Assembly: GCF_029223545.1 (NCBI RefSeq)
Contig: NZ_CP097870.1
Coordinates: forward strand, 3,410,001-3,474,000
Direction: 5' to 3'
Source: Thauera sp. GDN1
Lineage (GTDB): Bacteria; Pseudomonadota; Gammaproteobacteria; Burkholderiales; Rhodocyclaceae
Length of the DNA stretch: 64,000 nucleotides
Shown here: piece by piece, positions 42,913 to 54,509 of the stretch
Numbering within the stretch: the first letter of the stretch is position 1
Layout of the letters: each line of letters begins with the position of its first letter
The notes under the pieces: generated by a model
What the model was told of the DNA's origin: nothing
The model's database searches: none
Seen by the model: the letters and a program-made list of their open reading frames with translations, nothing else
Program-made: the position numbers and the translations under genes

Positions 42913-44367
42913 TCAGGCGCCGCGCTTGCGCTTGTCGGCGACCTTCTCCCACAGCTGGGCGTTCTCGATCCCGAGCGGGCGCGGATCGAACTCGGGCTCG
43001 GCGCGGCCGCGTGCCTGCTGCGCCTCGTAGTCCTTGAGCGCCACCAGCGCCGGCTTCTGCAGCACCAGGATGGCGACGATGTTGAGCCAGGCCATCAGAC
43101 CGACGCCGATGTCGCCCAGGCCCCAGGCCAGGTCGCTGGTGCGCACGCAGCCGTACAACGCGGACGCGATCAGGGCCACGCGCAGCACGAAGATCAACGA
43201 CTCGGAACGCAGGTTGCGGGTCAGGTAGGCGAGGTTGGTCTCGGCAATGTAGTAGTAGGCGAGCACCGTGGTGAAGGCGAAGAAGAACAGCGCGACCGCC
43301 ACGAACATCGAGCCGAAGCCGGGCAGCACCTGCTCCATCGCAGCCTGGGTGAAGCCGGTGCCCGCAGCGATGTTGGCGAGGCCGGTGAACACCTGCTGGC
43401 CGTCCGCGCCGGTCACGTTGTAGGTCCCGGTGATCAGCACCATGAACGCGGTCGCCGAGCACACGAAGAGCGTATCCACATACACCGAGAACGCCTGCAC
43501 CAGGCCCTGCGCGGCCGGGTGCGGCACTTCGGCGGCGGCGGCGGCGTGCGGGCCGGTACCCTGGCCCGCCTCGTTCGAATACACCCCGCGCTTGACGCCC
43601 CACTGGATGGCCAGGCCGATCATCGCGCCGAAACCGGCGTCGAGGCCGAAAGCGGAGGACAGGATCAGGCTGATGACCTCGGGCACCTTCTCGACGTTGA
43701 GCGCCACCACCACGGCCGCGGCCAGGATGTAGCCGAGCGCCATGAAGGGCACGACCACCTGGGTGACCTGGGCGATGCGGCGCACGCCACCGAAGATGAT
43801 CAGGCCGAGCAGGATCACGATCAGGGTGCCGGTCACCGCCGGCGCCACGCCGAAGGCGTTCTCCATGCTGGCCGCGATGCTGTTGGTCTGCACCCCCGGC
43901 AGCAGCAGGCCGCAGGCGAACACCGTCACCACGGCGAACACGATCGCGTACACGCGCCAGCCCAGGCCCTTCTCGATGTAGTAGGCGGGGCCGCCGCGGT
44001 ACAGCCCGTGGTGCTCGGTCTTGTAGATCTGGCCGAGCGCCGACTCGATGTAGGCGGTCGCGGCGCCGAGGAAGGCCACCATCCACATCCAGAAGATGGC
44101 GCCGGGACCGCCGAAGCCGATCGCGGTGGCGACGCCGGCGATGTTACCGGTGCCCACACGCCCCGACAGCGCGATGGTCAGCGCCTGGAAGGACGACACG
44201 CCCGCGGCCGAGCTCTTGCCGCGGAACATGGCGCGCACCATCTCGCCCATGTGGCGCACCTGCATGAAACGGGTGCGGATCGAGAAATACAGGCCTACCA
44301 GCAGGCAAAGGTAGACGAGTGCTGGGCTCCATACCCAGCCGTTGATCCAATCGACGGTCTCTTGCAT
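42913..44367 (-). CDS. AGCS-family alanine/glycine:cation symporter
   Basis: A 484-residue inner-membrane protein with about eleven helices. Family signatures are ALSGRVGTGNIAGVATAIGF near residue 75 and the central GVKRGVYSNEAGQGTGPHAAAAA. It takes up alanine, glycine or related small amino acids with sodium or protons. It is a single gene bounded by a terminator at its 3' end and an operator-like dyad upstream. The start MQETVDWINGWVW at ATG 44367 matches the family; a much longer open frame upstream belongs to no gene. Confidence 0.93.
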   Translation of the reverse strand: MQETVDWINGWVWSPALVYLCLLVGLYFSIRTRFMQVRHMGEMVRAMFRGKSSAAGVSSFQALTIALSGRVGTGNIAGVATAIGFGGPGAIFWMWMVAFLGAATAYIESALGQIYKTEHHGLYRGGPAYYIEKGLGWRVYAIVFAVVTVFACGLLLPGVQTNSIAASMENAFGVAPAVTGTLIVILLGLIIFGGVRRIAQVTQVVVPFMALGYILAAAVVVALNVEKVPEVISLILSSAFGLDAGFGAMIGLAIQWGVKRGVYSNEAGQGTGPHAAAAAEVPHPAAQGLVQAFSVYVDTLFVCSATAFMVLITGTYNVTGADGQQVFTGLANIAAGTGFTQAAMEQVLPGFGSMFVAVALFFFAFTTVLAYYYIAETNLAYLTRNLRSESLIFVLRVALIASALYGCVRTSDLAWGLGDIGVGLMAWLNIVAILVLQKPALVALKDYEAQQARGRAEPEFDPRPLGIENAQLWEKVADKRKRGA

Positions 44368-44396
44368 GAGGGGACATCCGGAAAAATGAGGCGCTG

Positions 44397-44441: not shown

Positions 44442-44464
44442 AAAAACCCGGACACGCACGTGTC
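44442..44464 (-). terminator. Probable terminator overlapping the CcmF-like stop codon
   Basis: On the minus strand GACAC-GTGC-GTGTC (44464-44451) forms a short hairpin. CGGG and TTTTT (to 44442) follow. The stem overlaps the last codon of the CcmF-like gene. It is weak by stem length but well placed to end the long qhp-linked run. Confidence 0.4.
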
Positions 44465-46652
44465 ACTGCATCGAGGGATGACTCTTTCGGAGCGTCTTGC
44501 GCGAGCCCACCAGGGCCAGCCACGCACTGCCGAACAGGACCAGGAGCAGCCCGCTCCACAACAGGGAAATGAAGGGGAAGACCTTCACCACCACGATCAC
44601 CGCGCCGCCGGCGCGCCCGTCGATCGCCTCGACCACCGCGGCAGGCGCCACCCAGAACTGCACTGCGCGCATCCAGCCCTGGTCGATCAAGGGTTGCAGC
44701 AGATATCCGGGCGTGCCGACGTGGCGCGCATAGCGATAGTCCAGCAGCTCGCACACCTGGCGCAGTGGCCCGTCGAAGCGCTCGGACGGCGCCCGCGCAT
44801 CCCGGTACAGGGTCTGGCCGTCCAGCCTTTCCCCCGTCGGCCCGCGCACCTCGATCGTGGTCAGCGCCTGCACCGCGGCCGGCGCAGCGCTGGCCCCGTC
44901 GAGCGCGGGCCCGATGCGGATGTCCGCGAGCCGGAACGCGTAGCCATGGCGATCCTTCGCCCACGCGCTCGGCCCGCCGTCGAAGACGATCTCGTGCTGC
45001 GTGTAGCTGTTGAGCGCGGTCGCCAGCAATCCGCCCCACAAGGCGAGGGCGACACCGGCATGGATCGCCGCCAGCGGGACCACCGTCGCCACCGCCTTGC
45101 GGCCCTGCCGATGCAGGACCTGAACCGCCCAGGCAAGGCCGCCGAGCGCGAGATAGGCACCACCGACCAGGCTGGCGTCGAGCCACGGCAGCACGGCCAC
45201 GATCTGCTGCGACAGGATGCCGGCTCCCGTGTACTGCCGCGTCACTGCACCGCCCCACAGCGCGTTGGCTCCCATTGCCAGCAGGACCAGCAGCAGGGTT
45301 CCGCGCCCGGCCGCCACCGAGATCCGGCGGAAGAAGTACCAGCCGCCCACCAGCCCGAATCCGGCCAGCGGCAGCAGTAGAAGACGCGCGAGCACGTAGC
45401 CGTCCACGTCCCACTGCTCGAAGGCTGCGCGCAGGGCCGCGAGCTCGCCGCCGGTGGTGAGGTTGCCCAGCATGGCGAGGAAGGGCTTGTATTCCTCCGG
45501 ACGGGGCAGATGGAGCACGCCCGCGCCGAAGGCGAACAGCAACTGCCCGGCGGCGACCGCAGCGGCCCCCACGAAGCACAGTTGAGCCAGCCACAGCCCC
45601 GAGGGCAGGCGCCAGCCCGTGGGTGAGGCCGCCTTTCCCGCCCGCCGCCCCGCGATCGCGCATGCGACGCCCGCCAGCAGCAGCACGCCAGCGAGCACGA
45701 GGTGGGCGATCCAGGAGTCGGCGCCCACGTAGCGATGCGAGCTCGCGAGCACCGGATTGCGCGTCACCGCCATCACCAGCGGCACCGCCGCGGCTGCGAG
45801 CACGCCGGCCCACGGCATCGTCCGCCAGTGCGGGCGCCCCACGCCCCAGCCCGCCACCCCGTGGAGGTGGGCGCCGAGCACGCACCACAGGCAGAACACC
45901 GCGGTCTGCACCGGATCCCAGTGCCAGACCTGGCCGTACATCGCATCCTCGAACGCCCACAGCATGCCGAAACCGATGCCGGCGGTGAGCACCAGCCAGG
46001 CCCGGCGCGCATGCGCACGGGCGAGCACCGGCCACGGTGCCGGCACCCCGCGCAAGGCGTCGAGAGCGGGCGCGGCGAGTGCCAGCGTCCACGCATAGGC
46101 GGCCAGCACCAGCGGCGCATGGAACAGCATCCACGGCTTCATCAGGTGGGCGTTCATGCCTTGCGACGGCGCCTGCGCCAGCCACCCGGCCGGTGTCGCG
46201 GCGAAGGGCGTCAGCCACAATGCGGTGAACGCGACCCAGGCGGCGATCGCGGCCGCGACCGAATGGCGGCCCCGATCGCCGCCGGCGCGCGCCCTGCCAG
46301 CGGCAAGACCGAGGCAGCAGGCAGCGAGCATCAAGGTCGTGCCCTCGTCGCCCCCCCACACGTTGGCGATCTTCAGGTGCAGCGGCAACTCGGCGCTGCT
46401 GTACAGCCACACGTAGCGCACCCCGAAACCGTCGGCGGCGAAATGCCAGCCCAGGGCCAGCACACAGGCCCATGCCAGGGCCGCCGCGAGCGCGAGCGCG
46501 GCGGCCCGCCCAACCGCCCGGAACGCCGCATGCACGGTGAGTCCCAGCGCCACCGCGAGGAGCGACTGCCCCGCCGCCGGCCACATCGCCACCAGCGGCA
46601 CGGCCAGCGCCACGACCGCTACCGGCGCCACCCCACGCGGCACGGCCCGCAT
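44463..46652 (-). CDS. CcmF-like cytochrome c haem lyase
   Basis: A 729-residue protein with about fifteen membrane helices. It carries the CcmF pattern: LHLKIANVWGGDEGTTLML (in place of VWGGHEGS), the conserved His in PWMLFHAPLVLAAYAW, and a WWD-like segment GQVWHWDPVQTAVFCLWCVL. A periplasmic domain (about 560-680) precedes the last helix. CcmF ligates haem to CXXCH apocytochromes in the periplasm. No other ccm gene is near, so it looks like a paralogue dedicated to a special cytochrome. It starts 1 bp after the UbiU-like gene's stop and is the third member of that unit. The diheme QhpA encoded on the same strand is an attractive client (inference). Confidence 0.8.
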   Translation of the reverse strand: MRAVPRGVAPVAVVALAVPLVAMWPAAGQSLLAVALGLTVHAAFRAVGRAAALALAAALAWACVLALGWHFAADGFGVRYVWLYSSAELPLHLKIANVWGGDEGTTLMLAACCLGLAAGRARAGGDRGRHSVAAAIAAWVAFTALWLTPFAATPAGWLAQAPSQGMNAHLMKPWMLFHAPLVLAAYAWTLALAAPALDALRGVPAPWPVLARAHARRAWLVLTAGIGFGMLWAFEDAMYGQVWHWDPVQTAVFCLWCVLGAHLHGVAGWGVGRPHWRTMPWAGVLAAAAVPLVMAVTRNPVLASSHRYVGADSWIAHLVLAGVLLLAGVACAIAGRRAGKAASPTGWRLPSGLWLAQLCFVGAAAVAAGQLLFAFGAGVLHLPRPEEYKPFLAMLGNLTTGGELAALRAAFEQWDVDGYVLARLLLLPLAGFGLVGGWYFFRRISVAAGRGTLLLVLLAMGANALWGGAVTRQYTGAGILSQQIVAVLPWLDASLVGGAYLALGGLAWAVQVLHRQGRKAVATVVPLAAIHAGVALALWGGLLATALNSYTQHEIVFDGGPSAWAKDRHGYAFRLADIRIGPALDGASAAPAAVQALTTIEVRGPTGERLDGQTLYRDARAPSERFDGPLRQVCELLDYRYARHVGTPGYLLQPLIDQGWMRAVQFWVAPAAVVEAIDGRAGGAVIVVVKVFPFISLLWSGLLLVLFGSAWLALVGSRKTLRKSHPSMQ

Positions 46653-46653
46653 C

Positions 46654-47667
46654 TCAGCGCGCCTCCGCCCGCAACACCTCGGGGTAATAGCACATGTAAC
46701 CGGTGGCGCAATGCGCTTCCGAAGGCCGCAGCTTCATGGCGAATTCACGGACATCGGCGTCGTCCTCACCGCAGCGCACGCGATCCAGCACGGATCTGAC
46801 CATGCGCACGCTCGCCAGCTTGCGCGCGGTGGGCGCCTCGCGCCCGGCGATCTTGATCGCCGCCACCCGCCCGCGCCGCAGCGCGGGCACGGCACACAAG
46901 CCGCAAGGTCCGTAGGGCAGGCCTTCGGGCGTGGTGCTGAAGCCGCAGGAGAAGCGGTACCACAGCCAGCGCTCGTACTCGGCGTCGTTCTCCTGCAGAC
47001 GCGCCGCCAGCCGCGGCGACACGTCGCTGCCGTCGCGACGGCGGTAACGGTATTCGAAGCGATCGAGGCAGATCGGCCCGCCGAGCTGGCCCGGCAGGTG
47101 GATGGTGTGGCAGGCGCCTTCCTCGAAGATGCAGCCGTCGTTGAGCACGAAGGCCTCGATCTCGATGTCGGGCACCTCGGCGGCGATGCTGGCGGCCTCG
47201 GCCAGGGTGACGTCGCGCGGCAGGATCAGGCGTTGCGCGCCGAGCTCGCGGCACAGCCGTGCCGCCCCCGCGTTGCGACAGGTCGCCACCGAGCTGACGT
47301 GCATGCGCAGCGCCGGAAAGCGCGTCGACAGCGCATGGAGCAGGCCGAGGTCGCTGATGATCAGCGCATCGCCGCCCAGCGCCGCGAAACGCCCGGCGAT
47401 TTCCTCCGCGGCACCGATCTGGGCGGCGGAATAGTGCTGGGCGTTGAGCACCAGCGACACGGTTGCCTCATGCGCATGAGCGATGTCGATCGCGCTCGCC
47501 AGGTCCTCGTAGCGCGTCAGGTTGCCCGAGGGGCGGCGATTGGCATTGATCGCATGGAAGCGCCCCAGCCAGTCGGGCGGCACCAGGCCGCAGTAGAACT
47601 CGTTCGCGCCCGCCTGCGCCAGCGGCTCGATCTCGGCGACGCGCGATACCGGGGCAACGATCCTCAT
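46654..47667 (-). CDS. UbiU-like U32-family protein
   Basis: A 337-residue U32-family protein. It begins MRIVAPVSRVAEIEPLAQAG, as in U32 TIM-barrel proteins, has SSVATCRNAGAARLCRELG and RLILPRDVTL, and a cysteine set led by CIFEEGAC that parallels CIMSEGRC of E. coli UbiU. Further Cys at PICLDRF, FSCGFST and CGLCAV would complete an iron-sulfur site. UbiU works with UbiV in oxygen-independent hydroxylation during ubiquinone synthesis; no peptidase activity should be assumed. Here it overlaps the UbiV-like gene (ATGA) and precedes a CcmF-like gene. The divergence from true UbiU and the context suggest a different substrate. Confidence 0.78.
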   Translation of the reverse strand: MRIVAPVSRVAEIEPLAQAGANEFYCGLVPPDWLGRFHAINANRRPSGNLTRYEDLASAIDIAHAHEATVSLVLNAQHYSAAQIGAAEEIAGRFAALGGDALIISDLGLLHALSTRFPALRMHVSSVATCRNAGAARLCRELGAQRLILPRDVTLAEAASIAAEVPDIEIEAFVLNDGCIFEEGACHTIHLPGQLGGPICLDRFEYRYRRRDGSDVSPRLAARLQENDAEYERWLWYRFSCGFSTTPEGLPYGPCGLCAVPALRRGRVAAIKIAGREAPTARKLASVRMVRSVLDRVRCGEDDADVREFAMKLRPSEAHCATGYMCYYPEVLRAEAR

Positions 47668-48530
47668 AGCGGCGCTCCCGGCACGACCAGGCGGGCGACA
47701 CGCTTGCCGTCGACCGCCTGCCTCAGGCTGTGCGCCATCGCCGCCGAATGGCGGCTGAACAAGGTGTTGCCCAACTGCACACTGGCCCCCGCATCGGCCC
47801 GCCCGGGACGCGAGGCCAGCGCCGAGAAGCGCAGGCATTCCTTCTGGCAGCGGCGGCCGACGGCGAATCGCTCCGGCCCCTTCACCGCGAGCGAGCCCGC
47901 CCGACACATGCGGCCCTTGGCCACATAGACGTAGGGCAGGTGCACCGCGGTGGGCAAGGGCAGGTCGGCGAACGCCGCGTCGTCGGCGAACAGCGGCACA
48001 TCGATCTCCAGGCTCCGGATGCCCAGGCGTGCGAACAGGCCGCGCATCGTCGGCGCCGCGAGGCCATGGCCGCAACGGCCGGCCCAGCCCGCATCGAGCC
48101 GCGGATCCTTGGTCATGCGGCACAGCACCCGCCCGGCCACCGGACGCAAGTCCGGGAAACGGCTCGCCAGCTCGTGCGCGACGCCCCAGTCATTGACCAC
48201 CACCTCGCTGCCGGCCGGCAGCATGGTCAGCAGGGCGTCGAGTCGCGCAAGGACCTCGGGCGAGGCCACCGGGCTCAGCAGGACCAGACGCAGGCCGGCG
48301 CTCTCCGCCTGGCGCAGGGCCTCGCGCAAGGCCCGCGTGGACGGCAGCAGGTGTTCGCAGAACTCGCTGCCGAAATACAGATGGGTGGGCTGCAGCGGCG
48401 CCAGCCAGGCCGCCAGCTCGGCATCGCCATGGATGCGCTGCCAGTGGCGTGCGCGCTCCGCGGGCGCGGCCGCGATCCAGGTCAGATCGAGCGCATGGCA
48501 GGCTGCCACCGCCAGTTCGGGGGCATTCAT
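47664..48530 (-). CDS. UbiV-like U32-family protein
   Basis: A 288-residue protein with the layout of UbiV: THLYFGSEFCEHLL (compare YLGEAVCSKRR in E. coli UbiV) supplies the first Cys. A later group MCRAGSLAVKGPERF with GRRCQKEC supplies three more in a C-x18-C-x3-C arrangement, wider than the C-x12-C-x3-C of UbiV. These four are expected to hold a [4Fe-4S] cluster. AGGAGG sits about 7 bp before ATG 48530. It is separated from the aldehyde dehydrogenase gene by two strong hairpins and overlaps the UbiU-like gene by 4 bp, so the two proteins probably form a heterodimer. Confidence 0.75.
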   Translation of the reverse strand: MNAPELAVAACHALDLTWIAAAPAERARHWQRIHGDAELAAWLAPLQPTHLYFGSEFCEHLLPSTRALREALRQAESAGLRLVLLSPVASPEVLARLDALLTMLPAGSEVVVNDWGVAHELASRFPDLRPVAGRVLCRMTKDPRLDAGWAGRCGHGLAAPTMRGLFARLGIRSLEIDVPLFADDAAFADLPLPTAVHLPYVYVAKGRMCRAGSLAVKGPERFAVGRRCQKECLRFSALASRPGRADAGASVQLGNTLFSRHSAAMAHSLRQAVDGKRVARLVVPGAPL

Positions 48531-48623: not shown

Positions 48624-50126
48624 TCACAGGGCCATGATCACCGACTTGCTCTCGGTATATAGATCGAGCACCGCGCGCCCCATCTCGCGACCGATGCCCG
48701 ACTGCTTGTAGCCGCCGAAGGGCATCGAGGCGTCGAGGATGTTGTGGCAGTTGACCCACACCGTTCCGGCCTTGATCTTCGGCAGCAGCCGATGCACCCG
48801 CGACAGGTCGTTGGACCAGATGCTGGCACCCAGGCCGTAGGGCGTGTCGTTGGCGCGGCGGGCGACCTCGTCGAGATCGTCGTAAGGCATCGCGACCACC
48901 ACCGGGCCGAAGATCTCCTCGCGCACCACCTTCATGTCGTCACGGGTGTCGACCAGCACGGTGGGCTTGACGAAAAAGCCCTCGCCCTCGCCCGCCGCGC
49001 CGCCCGCCAGGGCGCGCGCGCCCTGGTCGAAGCCGCTGCGGATGTAGCCGAGCACGCGCTGCTGCTGGGTGGCCGAGACCAGCGGACCGATCTGGGTCGT
49101 GGGGTCGATGCCGGCACCGAGCTTCATGCCGGCGGCGATCTCGGACAGGCCCTCGACCACGCGTTCGAAGCGGCTCTTGTGCACATACAGGCGCGAACCC
49201 GCGCAGCACACCTGGCCCTGGTTGAAGAAGATCGCCTGCGCCGCGCCCGCGGCCGCCACCGCCGGATCGGCATCGTCGAGCACGATCACCGGGCTCTTGC
49301 CGCCGAGTTCCAGCGACACCCGCGTCATGTTGTCGAGCGCGGCCTTGCCCACCAGCTTGCCGATCTCGGTCGAGCCGGTGAAGGCGACCTTCTCGATACC
49401 GGTGTGCGCGGCCAGCGCGGCGCCCGCGGTGTGGCCGTGGCCGGTCACCACGTTGAACACCCCGGCCGGGTAGCCCGCCTCCAGCACCAGCTCGGCGAAG
49501 CGCAGCGCCGACAAGGGGGTTTCCTCCGCCGGCTTGAGCACCATGGTGCAGCCGGAGGCCAGCGCCGGTCCCGCCTTCCACGCCGCCATCAGCAGCGGGA
49601 AGTTCCACGGGATGATCGCGCCGACCACGCCCACCGGCTCGCGCCGGGTGAAGCCGAAGAACTCGCGGTTGCGCACCAGCGGCACCGACACTTCCATCGT
49701 CGAGCCCTCGAGCTTGGTCGCCCAACCGGCCATGTAGCGCAGGAAATCCACCATCAGCGCCAGGTCGACCGCGCGCGCCATGGTCACCGGCTTGCCGTTG
49801 TCGAGCGCCTCGATCTCGGCCAGCTCCTGCGCGTTCGCCTCGACCAGGTCGGCCAGGCGCAGCAGCAGGCGCTCGCGGTCCACCGGGCGCATCTTCGGCC
49901 ACTCGCCCTGCTCGAAGGCCTTGCGCGCCGCCGCCACTGCGCGGTCGATGTCGGCCGCCTCGCCCGCCGGCACGCTGGCAAACACCTGCGCGCTGGCCGG
50001 GTCGACCACCTCCAGCGTGCCGCCACCGACGGCCTCCAGCCACTCGCTGCCGATCAGCATGCGTTTGGGCTGGGCCAGGAACCGGCGTGTGTTGGCGCTC
50101 AGCAATTCACCCTTGTATCGATCCAT
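48624..50126 (-). CDS. NAD(P)-dependent aldehyde dehydrogenase
   Basis: A 500-residue aldehyde dehydrogenase. The motifs are PWNFPLLMAAWKAGPALASG, GFTGSTEIG-type FTGSTEIG, the general base Glu in LELGGKSP and the catalytic Cys in NQGQVCCAGSR. There is no signal peptide, so it is cytoplasmic. In the qhp context it would oxidise the aldehyde released from a primary amine to the acid. The frame reaches 50177, but ATG 50126 (MDRYKGELLSANTRRF) has GGAGA 7 bp upstream and does not run into the porin stop, so it is preferred. Confidence 0.92.
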   Translation of the reverse strand: MDRYKGELLSANTRRFLAQPKRMLIGSEWLEAVGGGTLEVVDPASAQVFASVPAGEAADIDRAVAAARKAFEQGEWPKMRPVDRERLLLRLADLVEANAQELAEIEALDNGKPVTMARAVDLALMVDFLRYMAGWATKLEGSTMEVSVPLVRNREFFGFTRREPVGVVGAIIPWNFPLLMAAWKAGPALASGCTMVLKPAEETPLSALRFAELVLEAGYPAGVFNVVTGHGHTAGAALAAHTGIEKVAFTGSTEIGKLVGKAALDNMTRVSLELGGKSPVIVLDDADPAVAAAGAAQAIFFNQGQVCCAGSRLYVHKSRFERVVEGLSEIAAGMKLGAGIDPTTQIGPLVSATQQQRVLGYIRSGFDQGARALAGGAAGEGEGFFVKPTVLVDTRDDMKVVREEIFGPVVVAMPYDDLDEVARRANDTPYGLGASIWSNDLSRVHRLLPKIKAGTVWVNCHNILDASMPFGGYKQSGIGREMGRAVLDLYTESKSVIMAL

Positions 50127-50176
50127 CTCTTGTCTCCGACTACTTGTGTATTGGTCTGGGGAAGGCGTCGTCGCCA

Positions 50177-51493
50177 TCAGAAGTTGAACAGCATCACCGC
50201 CTGCAGATAGACGTTGCGCCGGTCGTTGCCCTGCGCCGCCTTCACGCTGTCACCGCGCGGCTCGTAGATACCGATCAGCGGCACGAAGGTGAAGTTGTCG
50301 TTGATCTGCCAGAAGGCGAACAGGTCGATCTCGCGTCCGTCGAGATCCGGGGCGTCGCCGATGGACTTGATGTCCCAGTACTGCAGGCTCACCGACAGGT
50401 CCGCACGCGGGGCCACCGTCAGCTCGACGCGATCGAGCTTGTTGCCGCTGTTGGCCGGGCCGGCATAGTTGGCGGCGACCTCGCCCTGGAACCAGGTGCC
50501 GAGGCCGCGGCTGAGGCCGAAGAACAGCGGATCGAAGGCCTCGTTGCGATCGGTCCCCGCCTTGTCGGCCGAGAAGCGCGCATGACGGTAGTTCAGCGTC
50601 GGGCTCCACGGCAGGTCGGCGAAGGTCCAGCCGCCCTCGACGGTCCACGCGTCGGCGTCGTTCTTCACCACGTCGCTGCCGCCACGCTGATCGACGTACT
50701 CGAAGGACAGGAGCAGGTTCTCCACCCCCAAGCTGCCCTGGCCACGCAGGCTGGTGATGCGCATGCCGTCGCGGCGGTCGAAGATGCCCAGCCCGGCGCC
50801 CTTGTCCACGTCGAGCACCTTCATCCAGCTCAGGCCCAGGGTGCCGTGGGTCTCGGACACGTACTCCACATTCAGGCCGCCAAGCTCGGTGTCCTGCTGG
50901 TAGGGATTGTCCGACTGCAGCCAGAAGGCGTCGCCGCGCACGGGGCCATCCGGATCGACACGCAGGATGGCGGTGTTGCCGAAGCTCTTCTTCGCCGCCA
51001 GGTAATAGGCGCCACCGCGGTCGACGTCGGCACCGCCGAGCAAGGCCCCCTTGCCGAGGTTGATGCGGTCGCCCGCGATCAGGAAGCCGTCTCCGAGCTG
51101 GAACTGCTGGCGGCCGAAGGAGAAGTCGAGCAGGCCGCCGGCGCTGCGCCAGCCGAGGTAGGCGTCCTCCAGATCGACATCGCGCTCGCGTCCGCTGGTG
51201 TAGCCGCCGGCGTCGCCGTCGCCCCAGGTGCCCTGCGCGATCGCGCCCAGCCCGCCATACAGTTCACCCTCGCCGGCGCGGGTCTTGCCGACCAGCACGC
51301 CATGCACGAAGGCTTCGCGCCACTTCTTGCCGCCCTCGGCAAGATAGTCCTCGCTCGTCGAAAAGGCGCCGGCCATGCCGTCCACGTTGAAACCCAGGGT
51401 GGTGCCATCGCGTTCGTAGAAATCTGCGGCCTGCGCGCTGCCCAGCGTGGCCAGGCCCGCGAGCACGGCGGCCAGCGTCGTTTGAATGCGCAT
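50177..51493 (-). CDS. Outer-membrane beta-barrel porin
   Basis: A 438-residue outer-membrane protein. The signal peptide MRIQTTLAAVLAGLATLGS ends at AQA before ADFYERDG. The rest is alternating amphipathic beta-strand sequence with conserved repeats such as LDFSFGRQQFQLGDGFLI, and it ends in Phe (MLFNF) as barrel proteins do. It resembles alginate-export/DUF1302-like porins. Located between qhpB and the aldehyde dehydrogenase gene, it may admit amines to the periplasm; that role is inferred from position only. Confidence 0.82.
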   Translation of the reverse strand: MRIQTTLAAVLAGLATLGSAQAADFYERDGTTLGFNVDGMAGAFSTSEDYLAEGGKKWREAFVHGVLVGKTRAGEGELYGGLGAIAQGTWGDGDAGGYTSGRERDVDLEDAYLGWRSAGGLLDFSFGRQQFQLGDGFLIAGDRINLGKGALLGGADVDRGGAYYLAAKKSFGNTAILRVDPDGPVRGDAFWLQSDNPYQQDTELGGLNVEYVSETHGTLGLSWMKVLDVDKGAGLGIFDRRDGMRITSLRGQGSLGVENLLLSFEYVDQRGGSDVVKNDADAWTVEGGWTFADLPWSPTLNYRHARFSADKAGTDRNEAFDPLFFGLSRGLGTWFQGEVAANYAGPANSGNKLDRVELTVAPRADLSVSLQYWDIKSIGDAPDLDGREIDLFAFWQINDNFTFVPLIGIYEPRGDSVKAAQGNDRRNVYLQAVMLFNF

Positions 51494-51607: not shown

Positions 51608-52744
51608 TCAGCGCACGAAGACCTGCCCGGTGCCGAGCGACATGTCCCCGCCCGGCAGCGTCACCTGGCCGACCTTGGCCAGGGTGTCGGCGTCATGGAT
51701 GGAGATGTCGTTGAAGGTGCCGGTGAGATAGAGCCGGCTGCCTGACTGATTGGCCAACACCGTGTAATAGGTGTGGTCCAGTTCGGCGGCCTGCAGCAGC
51801 TTCTGCTGGGCGATGTCGTACTTGGTCAGGCGATGCAGCAGGCCGTAGATGATGTTGCGGTCTTTCGGCGAGCGGATGCCGGTGAAGTAGATCTCGGTCA
51901 GCGGGCCGAACTCGCGCGCCTCGGTCTCACCATTCTTCAGGTTGACGTTCAGGAAACCGTATTGGTACTCGGCGGTCGCCATGTCCTGCTTGTCGTCCTG
52001 GAACTTTGCCGTGGTGTACAGAATGGTGAAGTCCCGGGTGGGCGTCTGTACCGGCCACAGGTAAAGCACATCGAGCGGAGCGTGGGTCGAACGTTGCCAG
52101 TCCCGGATCGGCAGCGCCACCGTCATGGCACCGGTCTTCACATCCACCTTGTAGATGTTCGGGCCCGCCAGGTAGACCGCGCCGTCGTCGCCCGACTGCA
52201 TGATGTTGGCCTGGCGCGGGGCCGGGAACGTGCGCACCGGCCTGGCCTCCAGGCCGGCACCGGTGTCGTAGACCGCGAAACGTGGCTCGCCGACACGATA
52301 GTGGTCGCGGTTGATCGTGGTCGGGTTCTGCACCGCATACAGCTCCTTGCCATCGGGGCTGATGGTGAAGGAACCGATCGACTTGGCGCGCTCGTTGTCG
52401 CCCTGCGACATCTCGGCGCGGAAGGTGAGCTTGCAGGTATCGAGATCGACGCCGTAGATCGTGCCGAAGCGGTTGTTCAGCACGTAGGCGGTGCGGCGGT
52501 CGGGCGCGATCTGCGTGATGCCCGGCCCGAAGGCGTCGGGCAGCTTGCAGGTCTTGTAGACGCTGTCGCTGGCCAGGTCGACCACGTTCAGGTTGTTCGG
52601 GTAGTTGGCCACCATCAGGTATTCGCTGCCGGGCTTGAGCGCCAGCGACTCGTTGGCGGCGGCGGCATGCAAGGTGCCGGCGGCCAGGCAGGCAAGCGCA
52701 GCCGCGCTGCGGCGCAGGGCGCCACCGATCATCGTCTTCTTCAT
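51608..52744 (-). CDS. qhpB: Quinohemoprotein amine dehydrogenase beta subunit
   Basis: A 378-residue periplasmic protein. The signal peptide MKKTMIGGALRRSAAALACL ends near HAAAA, and a seven-bladed YVTN-type beta-propeller follows (YLMVANYPNNLNVVDLASDS, AYVLNNRFGTIYGVDLDTCK). In QHNDH the beta propeller holds the gamma subunit and shapes the active site. Gene order A-D-C-B is the same as in Paracoccus denitrificans. The gene begins 11 bp after the qhpC stop. The longer upstream frame to 52921 runs antisense-like through qhpC and is not used. Confidence 0.92.
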   Translation of the reverse strand: MKKTMIGGALRRSAAALACLAAGTLHAAAANESLALKPGSEYLMVANYPNNLNVVDLASDSVYKTCKLPDAFGPGITQIAPDRRTAYVLNNRFGTIYGVDLDTCKLTFRAEMSQGDNERAKSIGSFTISPDGKELYAVQNPTTINRDHYRVGEPRFAVYDTGAGLEARPVRTFPAPRQANIMQSGDDGAVYLAGPNIYKVDVKTGAMTVALPIRDWQRSTHAPLDVLYLWPVQTPTRDFTILYTTAKFQDDKQDMATAEYQYGFLNVNLKNGETEAREFGPLTEIYFTGIRSPKDRNIIYGLLHRLTKYDIAQQKLLQAAELDHTYYTVLANQSGSRLYLTGTFNDISIHDADTLAKVGQVTLPGGDMSLGTGQVFVR

Positions 52745-52755
52745 GTCCGCCCCCT

Positions 52756-53082
52756 TTACAGCTTGTCGCCCGGGAAGACCGAGCCGAGATTGCGCCAGTC
52801 CTCGCGGGTGTTGGCCGCGTCCTTGTTCCAGTCCGGGTAGGTGTTCATCACGTCCGGCACCTGCGCCGGCCACCAGCACGGGTCGGCACAGCCGTAGAGG
52901 TCCGACTCCATCGGCTGGCACAGCGATGCCACGCCGCCGAAGGCGTCCACTTCCCAGCCCGGGTCCACCGTCGCGGTGCAGCCGGCGATGGCGCTCATCG
53001 CCACCACTTCCTCGACCCGGTCCTCCGCGACCGCCTTGTCCAGCAGCCGCGCCTTGTTGTTGATCGCCTTGAGATGTTTCAT
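52756..53082 (-). CDS. qhpC: Quinohemoprotein amine dehydrogenase gamma subunit precursor (CTQ peptide)
   Basis: A 108-residue precursor. Residues 1-28 form a leader ([16 protein letters not shown]...), and the mature chain begins near Met29. With an offset of 28, every crosslink residue known from the P. denitrificans gamma subunit is present: Cys35-Glu44, Cys55-Asp61 and Cys69-Asp77 for the thioether bonds, and Cys65 with Trp71 for cysteine tryptophylquinone (mature 7/16, 27/33, 41/49, 37/43). The peptide is made in the cytoplasm, crosslinked by QhpD, hydroxylated, cleaved by QhpE and exported by QhpF. GAGGAGGG precedes ATG 53082, which overlaps the qhpD stop. Confidence 0.95.
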
Positions 53083-54509
53083 GACGCCCTCCTCGGGGAA
53101 ATATGCTTTTCGATGAAGGCCGGATTGCCGGCCATGATGCGGCTGTAGACCTCGATGCCGAAGTCCACCCAGTCCCGCATCAGATCGCAGTAGTGATAGG
53201 TGGGGTGTGCCGGATCGCCGTAGCGCGCGTAGCTCTCGTGGTAGCAGCCGCCCGAGCACAGGTTGCGGATGCGGCAGCTGGCGCAGCCGGTATCGGTGCG
53301 ATCCAGGCGCTGGGACAGGAAGTCGCCGAGCTGCTCGCGCTTGATGCCGTTCTTCACGTCGCCGAAGGTCGGCAGCGTGGAGCCGGTGAAGCGGTGGCAC
53401 AGGTTCAGTTCGCCCTTGTGATCGACCGCCAGCATCTTCAGCCCGGCACCGCAGGGCAACGCCTTCTTGTGGCCTTCGTGCAGGTCGGTGATCAGCTGGT
53501 GCATGTTGGAGAAGCCGATGTTGCGCCCCTCCAGCGCCGCCTCCAGGTAGCGCGCACCGAGCCGCTTGAGCCCGGCGAAGACCTCGACCAGCTCCTCGCC
53601 CGTCAGGTTGAAGGTGCTGATGTCGCCCGAGGTCACCGGCGCGAAGCCGACTTCGGCAAAGCCGAGCTCGTTGAACAGGTGGTCCCAGATGCGCTCGACC
53701 TCGGTGGTGCCGTGGGTCAGCGTGACGCGCGCGCCAACCGGCCGCGCGTCGTAGCGCGACAGCAGGCGCTCGGCCTTGCGCCGCACGGTCTCGTAGGTGC
53801 CCTGACCACCGACGGTGAGCCGGTTGCGGTCATGGATCGCCTTGGGGCCATCGATGCTGATCGACAGGCCGAAGCGGTGGGCGTTGAGCCAGTCGATGGT
53901 GTCGTCGGAGAGCAGGGTCGCGTTCGTGGTCATGACGAAATCGACCTGCTTGCCGAGCTCAGGGAAGCGCGTCTCGCAGTACGCCACCACGTCCTTTATC
54001 AGCGGCAGGTTGCTGAGCGGCTCGCCGCCGAAGAAGACGACGTTGTAGCGCGGCTCGTCGGGCGACTCGCGCAGCATCATCTCGATCGCATCTCGTGCGG
54101 TCTCGAAAGCCATCTTGCGGCCCGCCGAGGGCTTGTCGAGATCTTCCTTGTAGCAGTAGGTGCAGCTCAGGTTGCAGCCGGTGTTGACGTTGAGCACCAC
54201 CGTGGTGAGCGGGAAACGCTCGAAGGTGTGCGCGAGCGCCCCGGCGCCGGCCGGGCGGCCGTCGTCGATGAGCTCGAGCGCCACCAGCTCGCGGATCGCA
54301 TCGGCCACCTCCGCGGCGTCGAACTCGGTGCGCAATCCGTCGATCAGGGCCTCGGCGGTGAGGCTCTGGCGACGGATGCGATCGATCAGCGCCGCAGTCA
54401 GCGGGTCGAGCGCGAACAGCGAACTGCTCGGGATGTGGAACAGCATGCGCGTTTCATCGACGCGCAGCTCGTGCAGGTTGTTCTGCACCAGATTCAAGAC
54501 GGCACCCAT
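53079..54509 (-). CDS. qhpD: Radical SAM peptide-crosslinking enzyme QhpD
   Basis: A 476-residue SPASM radical SAM enzyme. Residues 1-110 contain a peptide-recognition-like region. The cluster motif CNLSCTYC uses Cys112, Cys116 and Cys119. FFGGEPL is the SAM site. The C-terminal SPASM domain has [26 protein letters not shown] and a last HYCDL for two auxiliary clusters. It forms the three intra-peptide Cys-to-Asp/Glu thioether bonds in QhpC. ATG 54509 is preceded by GGAGG. The 903-codon frame reaching 55790 lies antisense to nothing real and is rejected. Confidence 0.94.

What the first reader, a model, noticed from the sequence alone, without database searches (positions are those of the whole stretch)
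44463..48530. UbiV/UbiU-like U32 pair and CcmF-like haem lyase linked to the QHNDH cluster
Directly seen: three tightly packed minus-strand genes (ATGA overlap, then 1 bp) follow qhpADCB-porin-aldehyde dehydrogenase on the same strand. Known: UbiU-UbiV and other U32 proteins carry out oxygen-independent hydroxylation, while ubiquinone hydroxylation in air uses FAD monooxygenases; QhpG, an FAD monooxygenase, hydroxylates the CTQ Trp. Inference: by analogy, this divergent pair could supply an oxygen-independent route for Trp hydroxylation of QhpC in a facultative anaerobe, with the CcmF paralogue loading haem on QhpA. The cysteine spacing (C-x18-C-x3-C in the UbiV-like protein) differs from true UbiV. 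If right, this is an undescribed maturation branch. A plain UbiUV pair or a separate cytochrome unit are the rival readings.
Basis: partly seen in the sequence, partly recalled or inferred. Interest (0 to 1): 0.85.

Follow-up and report, generated by a model that had tools for sequence, protein, structure and literature searches.

The report
Candidate oxygen-free protein cofactor hydroxylase
Two neighbouring genes look like a way for bacteria to finish a quinone built into an amine-degrading enzyme without oxygen, in place of the oxygen-using enzyme described for that step.

Summary
The U32 pair (window 46654-48530) is neither UbiU nor UbiV: each forms its own clade, and this genome keeps canonical UbiU/UbiV elsewhere. 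The pair belongs to the qhp system: of 50 genomes chosen for carrying it, 43 pass the cut-off for the maturase QhpD, 5 fall just under it, 1 has a fragment, 1 has none. In 80 QhpD-positive genomes, QhpG (the O2-dependent Trp dihydroxylase) and the pair are distributed as QhpG only 42, pair only 24, both 13, neither 1. After qhpADCBFE the pair follows in 22 of 41 clusters, QhpG in 16. In Bacilli the pair is inside the operon in 7 of 7 sampled genomes. The QhpC acceptor residues are intact in 49 of 49 loci. The genome without QhpD has the pair overlapping a LodA-like gene, another cysteine-tryptophylquinone enzyme. Best reading: an Fe-S heterodimer that hydroxylates the cofactor Trp without O2. 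The CcmF-like gene is qhp-linked but not part of this unit. The reaction is inferred; the kinship-aware test was underpowered.

The parts
47664..48530 (-). U32B: divergent UbiV-like subunit, 288 aa; invariant C58, C209, C228, C232 as likely 4Fe-4S ligands
   Evidence: (profile alignment puts the four Cys on the UbiV ligands)
46654..47667 (-). U32A: UbiU-like subunit, 337 aa, PF01136; E171, C179, C186 and C200 match the U32 hydroxylase motif; extra conserved C255-x2-C258, C320, C326
44463..46652 (-). CcmF/NrfE-like membrane protein, 729 aa, PF01578; qhp-linked accessory gene, probably a haem lyase for QhpA (inference)
48624..50177 (-). aldehyde dehydrogenase
50177..51493 (-). porin-like outer-membrane protein (PF13372)
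51608..52744 (-). qhpB, QHNDH beta subunit (start is my estimate)
   Evidence: TIGR03907 493 bits
52756..53082 (-). qhpC, gamma subunit with the CTQ precursor Cys and CWW motif (start is my estimate; named by sequence and position, not scanned against a family)
53079..54509 (-). qhpD, radical SAM maturase that crosslinks QhpC
   Evidence: TIGR03906 743.5 bits
54578..56179 (-). qhpA, dihaem alpha subunit (start is my estimate)
   Evidence: TIGR03908 713.5 bits
57771..59114 (-). qhpG, FAD monooxygenase: the O2-dependent route in the same cluster
   Evidence: NF049967 551.1 bits
59104..59787 (-). qhpE-like subtilase (leader protease)
   Evidence: PF00082
59790..61559 (-). qhpF-like ABC exporter (ABC family, the name from its place in the cluster)

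Best explanation
U32B and U32A form a heterodimeric Fe-S enzyme of the U32 hydroxylase kind that inserts the oxygens into the tryptophan of QhpC which becomes cysteine tryptophylquinone (CTQ), without O2. It acts in the cytoplasm on QhpC already crosslinked by QhpD, before QhpE and QhpF process and export it. It replaces QhpG in qhp operons that lack QhpG, and gives hosts that carry both, such as this Thauera-like genome, an anoxic route beside the O2 route. This is the same division of labour as UbiUV beside the O2-dependent ubiquinone hydroxylases, and TrhP beside TrhO. By analogy with RlhA and TrhP the oxygen may come from prephenate. Shown here by computation: family identity, operon linkage, complementarity and positional replacement with QhpG, intact QhpC acceptor residues, conserved Cys, and a second link to a LodA-like CTQ oxidase. 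Inferred: the reaction, the heterodimer, the cluster, the oxygen donor, and dihydroxylation rather than one hydroxylation.
For: 1) Specificity: of 50 genomes chosen for having U32A, 43 pass the QhpD cut-off, 5 Bacilli score 410-449 bits (cut-off 453) inside qhp operons, 1 has a contig-edge fragment (258.6 bits), 1 has only a distant match (124 bits). 2) Complementarity in 80 QhpD-positive genomes collected without regard to the pair: QhpG only 42, both 13, pair only 24, neither 1 (Fisher p 4e-10, or 1e-6 without the genus g40, not corrected for kinship). Pair hits score 529-614 bits and no other place in these genomes passes E 1e-45. The 50 and the 80 overlap and are not to be added up. 3) Position: of 41 clusters with the order A-D-C-B-F-E the pair follows in 22, QhpG in 16 (14 of them behind the CcmF-like gene; 2 of these 14 also have the pair on the other side), neither in 3 (many clusters are from close relatives). 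4) Bacilli sample: 7 of 398 genomes have QhpD-like genes (418-449 bits, under the cut-off), and in 7 of 7 the pair lies between qhpB and qhpF with no QhpG match in the fetched region. 5) Not ubiquinone: of 48 pair-bearing genomes that I chose, 42 have canonical UbiU over the cut-off as well; the 6 that do not are the 6 Bacilli among them. 6) The QhpC CTQ residues (Cys and CWW) are intact in 49 of 49 loci that show both qhpC and U32A (3 of these have QhpG in the locus), so a Trp hydroxylation is still needed. QhpG adds two oxygens in an O2-dependent reaction, none from water (PMC7876137). 7) Ligands: UbiV C39/C193/C197 align with C58/C228/C232, C180 with C209 in the profile alignment; UbiU E161/C169/C176/C193 align with E171/C179/C186/C200. 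UbiU/UbiV ligands from PMC6747719; the Glu and Cys essential in TrhP/RlhA from PMC6599085. 8) The genome without QhpD has a lodA-like gene overlapping U32B by ATGA and U32B overlapping U32A; the LodA-like protein passes PF17990 and PF18417 and keeps the Cys of the LodA alignment and a WWP. 9) A genome whose U32A is 99.7% identical to the Aromatoleum aromaticum protein has one qhp cluster with the pair and no QhpG, and one with both. A paper title seen in two reference lists reports that two QHNDHs start anaerobic amine degradation in A. aromaticum EbN1.
Against: No biochemistry. The kinship-aware test (67 of the 80 genomes) had only 4 independent pairs and was not significant. One QhpD genome (680 contigs) has neither system. 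No enrichment of FNR-type boxes upstream of pair-bearing operons. The fourth UbiU ligand C232 aligns with Leu in most relatives, so U32A must use another Cys, probably C255 or C258; C200 is missing in 5 of the 58 relatives compared. U32B's membership of the U32 fold rests on a modest profile match (60% with UbiV, 87% with U32A, 0.03% with UbiU) and a TIM-barrel model. 13 of the 37 pair genomes among the 80 also have QhpG, so the two are not exclusive. Some pair-bearing Bacilli (Aneurinibacillus) are, as I recall, aerobes, so anoxia is not the only niche. The LodA case is one metagenome-assembled locus; the WWP falls on the LodA WWP only in a third stretch of -1.0 bits, and that genome also has QhpG-related FAD proteins of 145 and 132 bits elsewhere, so it may not lack a LodB.
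Confidence: 0.8

Rival explanations
1. The pair serves QHNDH/CTQ maturation but in another step: for example as a chaperone, protease or redox partner for QhpC or QhpD, while Trp hydroxylation without QhpG is done by an unlinked enzyme.
For: Only linkage is shown. The family is annotated as peptidase U32. QhpG also assists the QhpD reaction as a binding partner (PMC7876137), so a replacement could be structural.
Against: qhpE and qhpF are present in the A-D-C-B-F-E-pair operons and in the Bacilli operons, so leader cleavage and export are covered there. In 44 pair-bearing loci (39 distinct clusters) 36 had no further conserved frame of 100 aa or more inside the operon span; in the other 8 such frames were CcmF-like or aldehyde dehydrogenase genes or were not identified. 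The pair stands where QhpG stands in related operons. Link to LodA without QhpD. U32 members described are hydroxylation factors.
Confidence: 0.13
2. A plain second UbiU-UbiV for ubiquinone, linked to qhp by chance.
For: U32A aligns with UbiU (hhalign probability 99.95) and U32B weakly with UbiV.
Against: Separate clades with support 99/97 to 100/100; canonical UbiU kept in 42 of the 48 pair genomes searched; the pair occurs inside qhp operons of Bacilli with no UbiU match over the cut-off, which as I recall make menaquinone.
Confidence: 0.02
3. The three genes are one unit for haem handling on QhpA or another cytochrome, with the U32 pair acting on haem or on the lyase.
For: Directly adjacent in Thauera loci; the CcmF-like gene is qhp-linked in several lineages, among them four alphaproteobacterial-type loci with the pair and no QhpG in the locus.
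Against: Of 27 fetched clusters with the pair and no QhpG match only 1 has the CcmF-like gene, whereas 14 of 23 with QhpG and no pair do. No CcmF-like match in the Bacilli loci. The LodA-like enzyme is, as I recall, no cytochrome.
Confidence: 0.03

Closest known systems
UbiU-UbiV (anaerobic ubiquinone hydroxylase, E. coli YhbU/YhbV)
   Same: two adjacent U32 genes, one PF01136-type and one diverged; four conserved Cys in the UbiV-like partner; counterpart of an O2-dependent flavin monooxygenase route
   Different: separate clades; below the NCBIfam UbiU cut-off; spacing C-x18-C-x3-C instead of C-x12-C-x3-C; U32A lacks the Cys at UbiU C232 and has extra conserved Cys; linked to qhp and once to lodA; present in Bacilli
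TrhP and RlhA (prephenate-dependent RNA hydroxylation)
   Same: E...C-x6-C core motif; U32 family; TrhP runs beside an O2-dependent enzyme (TrhO)
   Different: single-gene RNA factors, longer proteins; different places in the tree
QhpG (FAD-dependent peptidyl Trp dihydroxylase)
   Same: proposed same step and same place in the operon
   Different: unrelated protein; needs O2 and FAD
LodB/GoxB (flavoprotein partners of LodA/GoxA)
   Same: proposed analogous step next to lodA in L081
   Different: unrelated protein; flavoprotein; that lodB usually neighbours lodA is recalled
CcmF/NrfE haem lyase subunits
   Same: PF01578; WWD-type motif and four His aligned with the genome's own CcmF
   Different: 30% identity over 317 residues to the genome's CcmF, below the NCBIfam cut-offs, qhp-linked

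Membership tests
UbiU (NF047963) | score over the equivalog cut-off of 440 bits | tested here: not met
   91.5 bits
UbiU/UbiV | falls in the UbiU or UbiV clade | tested here: not met
   U32A, U32B, UbiU and UbiV are four separate groups, support 99/97 to 100/100
UbiV | four conserved Cys, CXnCX12CX3C | tested here: inconclusive
   four invariant Cys, but the spacing is C-x18-C-x3-C
UbiU | Cys ligands C169, C176, C193, C232 | tested here: not met
   three of four aligned; the fourth column is Leu in the window, other Cys may substitute
Peptidase family U32 (PF01136) | Pfam gathering score, U32A | tested here: met
   132.6 bits, cut-off 22.4
Peptidase family U32 (PF01136) | U32B matches the family | tested here: inconclusive
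U32 hydroxylases | essential E and C-x6-C motif (TrhP E162, C170, C177) | tested here: met
   E171, C179 and C186 in 58 of 58 relatives; essentiality from PMC6599085
U32 hydroxylases | Fe-S cluster binding and O2-independent hydroxylation | not testable with these tools
   needs protein
QHNDH maturation (qhp) system | genetic linkage to qhpA-F | tested here: met
CcmF/NrfE | PF01578 | tested here: met
   50.7 bits, cut-off 29.9
CcmF/NrfE | NCBIfam CcmF/NrfE cut-offs | tested here: not met
   59.8 of 569.05 and 59.4 of 927.3 bits

The most novel reading that the evidence does not exclude
A general O2-independent hydroxylase of a protein side chain: an Fe-S U32 heterodimer that makes tryptophylquinone cofactors in at least two unrelated enzyme families (QHNDH and LodA-like oxidases). 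It would be the anoxic counterpart of QhpG and LodB, perhaps with prephenate as oxygen donor, and would show that CTQ biogenesis does not require air.
Probability: 0.6. Interest if true: 0.95.

Novelty: new variant of a known kind. Interest (0 to 1): 0.9.

Why it matters
The described routes to tryptophylquinones use O2 or flavin chemistry (PMC7876137), yet QHNDH is reported to start anaerobic amine degradation (title), so how the oxygens get into the Trp there is an open question. This gives two genes to test. If right, it extends U32 hydroxylases from RNA and lipid quinones to protein side chains, explains qhp operons without qhpG, and gives a role to proteins now annotated as hypothetical protein or U32 family peptidase.

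Tried and rejected
Tried and weak or negative. FNR-type boxes (at most 1 mismatch) upstream of pair-bearing operons: no enrichment (1 of 39 qhpA upstream regions in clusters with the pair, 0 of 19 separate U32B, 0 of 10 Bacilli qhpC, against 2 of 27 in QhpG clusters). Independent-pairs test on a QhpD tree of 67 of the 80 genomes: 4 pairs, median p 0.5. Sequence search of the PDB with both profiles: only chance hits. Plasmid collection with U32A at E 1e-20: no match. FAD proteins of 156-185 bits over about 300 residues of the QhpG model were not counted as QhpG: such a protein is a second match in 8 genomes that have a QhpG over the cut-off (G472, G506, G621, G650, G661, G746, G800, G803), and the only match in G541.

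Rejected: plain UbiUV copy; one haem unit of three genes. Rows dropped: one QhpD genome (G862) was left out because a call takes at most 80. Of the 80 loci, 50 were given to the whole-genome searches; of the other 30, three (L012, L016, L023) lie in genomes already included. In one search, G045 counts as QhpG-negative, but it has two QhpG-like fragments (122 and 114 bits), one on the contig of its QhpD fragment, and may be a false negative. For 4 Bacilli (G898, G1000, G1020, G1145) and 6 of the 7 Alphaproteobacteria only the fetched cluster was examined, not the whole genome; G225 was in the 80-genome searches. Of the 3 A-D-C-B-F-E clusters followed by neither enzyme (L176, L193, L198), all three genomes have U32A elsewhere: on another contig in G779 and G483, 14 kb away in G456. 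The five duplicates among the 44 loci were recognised from equal contig lengths. Cluster states rest on tblastn with the window's proteins (over 150, 200 and 120 bits for CcmF-like, U32A and QhpG), so diverged copies may be missed. The JB 2019 paper on A. aromaticum was not readable, so it may already mention these genes.
Full report
WHAT IS THERE. The three genes are real and arranged as described. U32A belongs to Peptidase_U32, U32B has no Pfam or NCBIfam match, and the third gene is CcmF/NrfE-like. The window also holds a complete qhp set: qhpA, B and D pass their NCBIfam cut-offs, qhpC lies between B and D, qhpE and qhpF are recognisable, and qhpG is present at 551 bits. The genome is one contig of 3.87 Mb with five U32 places in the Pfam search: the pair's U32A, canonical UbiU and UbiV about 60 kb away, and two more that group with TrhP and RlhA.

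THE PAIR IS A DISTINCT FAMILY. In a tree of 62 proteins U32A, U32B, UbiU and UbiV are each one group with support 99/97 to 100/100 (the program warned of long branches joining U32B with the RlhA rows). U32A scores 91.5 bits against the UbiU model with cut-off 440. U32B is recognisable as UbiV-like only by profile comparison: 252 aligned columns, probability 60% with UbiV, 87% with U32A, 0.03% with UbiU. Models have mean pLDDT 84.0 and 83.7. The solved U32 protein 5d88 is the best Foldseek match for U32A; for U32B it is Foldseek rank 5 and the first VIA row, there tied with CutC.

CYSTEINES. Four Cys of U32B are invariant in 66 of 66 and fall on the UbiV cluster ligands, three in the multiple alignment and the fourth in the profile alignment. 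In U32A, E171, C179 and C186 are invariant and C200 is present in 54 of 59. The UbiU ligand C232 has no counterpart, but C255-x2-C258 are invariant and C320 and C326 are in 58 of 59, so a different fourth ligand or a second cluster is possible. The model is of low confidence at residues 183-203, which hold two of these Cys. Ligand data for UbiU/UbiV come from passages of PMC6747719, for TrhP/RlhA from passages of PMC6599085.

LINK TO QHP. A scan of a species-level genome collection with the U32A profile found 108 relatives and kept 80 loci. U32B lies directly upstream of U32A in 78 of 80; 49 of 80 loci, and 38 of 44 with 9 kb or more on both sides, carry at least two of qhpA-D. Whole-genome searches of 50 of these genomes found QhpD over the cut-off in 43, at 410-449 bits in 5 Bacilli, a fragment in one, and only a distant match in one. 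QhpG was over its cut-off in 18 of 50.

COMPLEMENTARITY. QhpD-positive genomes were collected without regard to the pair: 7 of 398 from the phylum, 54 of 395 from the family, 24 of 25 from one further genus (the three sets overlap, 81 genomes in all). Of these, 80 were searched for QhpG and U32A: QhpG only 42, both 13, pair only 24, neither 1. Ten genera have only QhpG, seven only the pair, three are mixed. Fisher's p of 4e-10 ignores kinship; the kinship-aware test had 4 pairs and says nothing firm. Of 42 U32A genes 35 lie within 20 kb of qhpD, and in 30 clusters the distance is 3.6-6.8 kb. Several of these 80 genomes are also among the 50 above.

POSITION. Of the clusters read from the regions have the order A-D-C-B-F-E. 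Next comes the pair in 22, QhpG in 16 (14 of them behind the CcmF-like gene), neither in 3; many are from close relatives. In Bacilli, sampled evenly, 7 of 398 genomes have QhpD-like genes, all under the curated cut-off, and 7 of 7 have C-A-D-B-U32B-U32A-F-E. In Alphaproteobacteria (class inferred from its not being the window's class), 7 of 385 have QhpD; 6 have a QhpG match in the cluster, one lies on a short contig, and no pair was seen in these clusters. Some loci found through the pair, such as Magnetospirillum and Terasakiella, do have it with qhp.

NEED FOR A HYDROXYLASE. The QhpC Cys and the CWW motif that become CTQ are intact in 49 of 49 pair-bearing loci with qhpC. QhpG adds two oxygens to this Trp when O2 is supplied, and label from water did not enter (PMC7876137: introduction and discussion read; passages). 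Operons without QhpG therefore need another source. In 44 pair-bearing loci (39 distinct clusters) 36 had no further conserved frame inside the operon span; the other 8 hold CcmF-like, aldehyde dehydrogenase or unidentified frames.

SECOND CTQ ENZYME. The one genome of 50 without a QhpD, a Myxococcaceae bin, has a 673-aa gene that passes LodA_N and LodA_C, with L-lysine 6-oxidase as best solved relative. Its stop overlaps the U32B start (ATGA), and U32B overlaps U32A. Its Cys 599 falls on the Cys of the second aligned stretch; a WWP falls on the LodA WWP only in a stretch of -1.0 bits. That LodA's CTQ is Cys516-Trp581 and that lodB usually neighbours lodA are recalled. The genome also has QhpG-related FAD proteins under the cut-off elsewhere. 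LodA shares CTQ with QHNDH but, as I recall, no subunit, crosslink or c-haem, so this locus argues that the pair acts on the tryptophylquinone itself. It is one locus.

ANAEROBIC USE. One genome, whose U32A is 99.7% identical to the Aromatoleum aromaticum protein P0174, has two qhp clusters: one with QhpG and a nearby divergent pair, the other with the pair alone. The title of Schmitt et al. 2019, seen in two reference lists, says that two QHNDHs initiate anaerobic aromatic amine degradation in strain EbN1. The paper itself was not held.

CCMF-LIKE GENE. It differs from the genome's own CcmF (30% identity over 317 residues) but keeps its WWD-type motif and four aligned His. It is in 28 of 76 fetched qhp clusters: 6 with both enzymes, 14 with QhpG only, 1 with the pair only, 7 with neither in view. 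It is a qhp accessory, perhaps a haem lyase for QhpA, and not a partner of the pair.

NOVELTY. No paper on U32 proteins in QHNDH or CTQ maturation turned up in searches of the open library (listings only, apart from the passages and sections named). NCBIfam 20.0 gave no model that either protein passes. The library holds openly licensed papers only.

HOW IT PROBABLY WORKS. QhpD crosslinks QhpC. U32A-U32B binds the crosslinked QhpC and, through Fe-S clusters and a donor such as prephenate, hydroxylates the Trp, in the end at C7 and C6 as proposed for QhpG. QhpE removes the leader and QhpF exports the subunit. Final oxidation to the quinone would use the haems of QhpA, as proposed for the QhpG route. 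All steps of the pair are inference.

Noticed in passing
   Followed up: partly
G490:C1:4840801-4845348, and G613, G638, G708, G745, G768, G779, G790: Three tandem U32-like frames about 2 kb apart (84-103 bits against UbiU); two of the three were listed for G659. Apparently another undescribed U32 set
   Followed up: no
rows of 156-185 bits such as G472:C1:4376342, G621:C1:428472: A recurring FAD protein related to residues 1-300 of the QhpG model, apart from the QhpG gene; may be LodB/GoxB-like
   Followed up: no
G494:C1:1535982 and 3162553: Two canonical UbiU genes with identical scores in one genome
   Followed up: no
window 42913-44370, minus strand: Probable amino-acid carrier symporter (named by eye, not scanned) downstream of the CcmF-like gene; also downstream in Thauera loci L006, L008 and L010
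   Followed up: no
neighbours listed: A 620-aa probably exported protein and an RND-like exporter (both named by eye) recur beside pair-bearing clusters, in 18 of 44 loci each
   Followed up: no
G852 (L017, L221) and G844 (L015, L224): Pseudomonas genomes where the pair is not beside qhp: 368 kb from the nearest qhpD on its contig in G852, on a contig without qhpD in G844
   Followed up: partly
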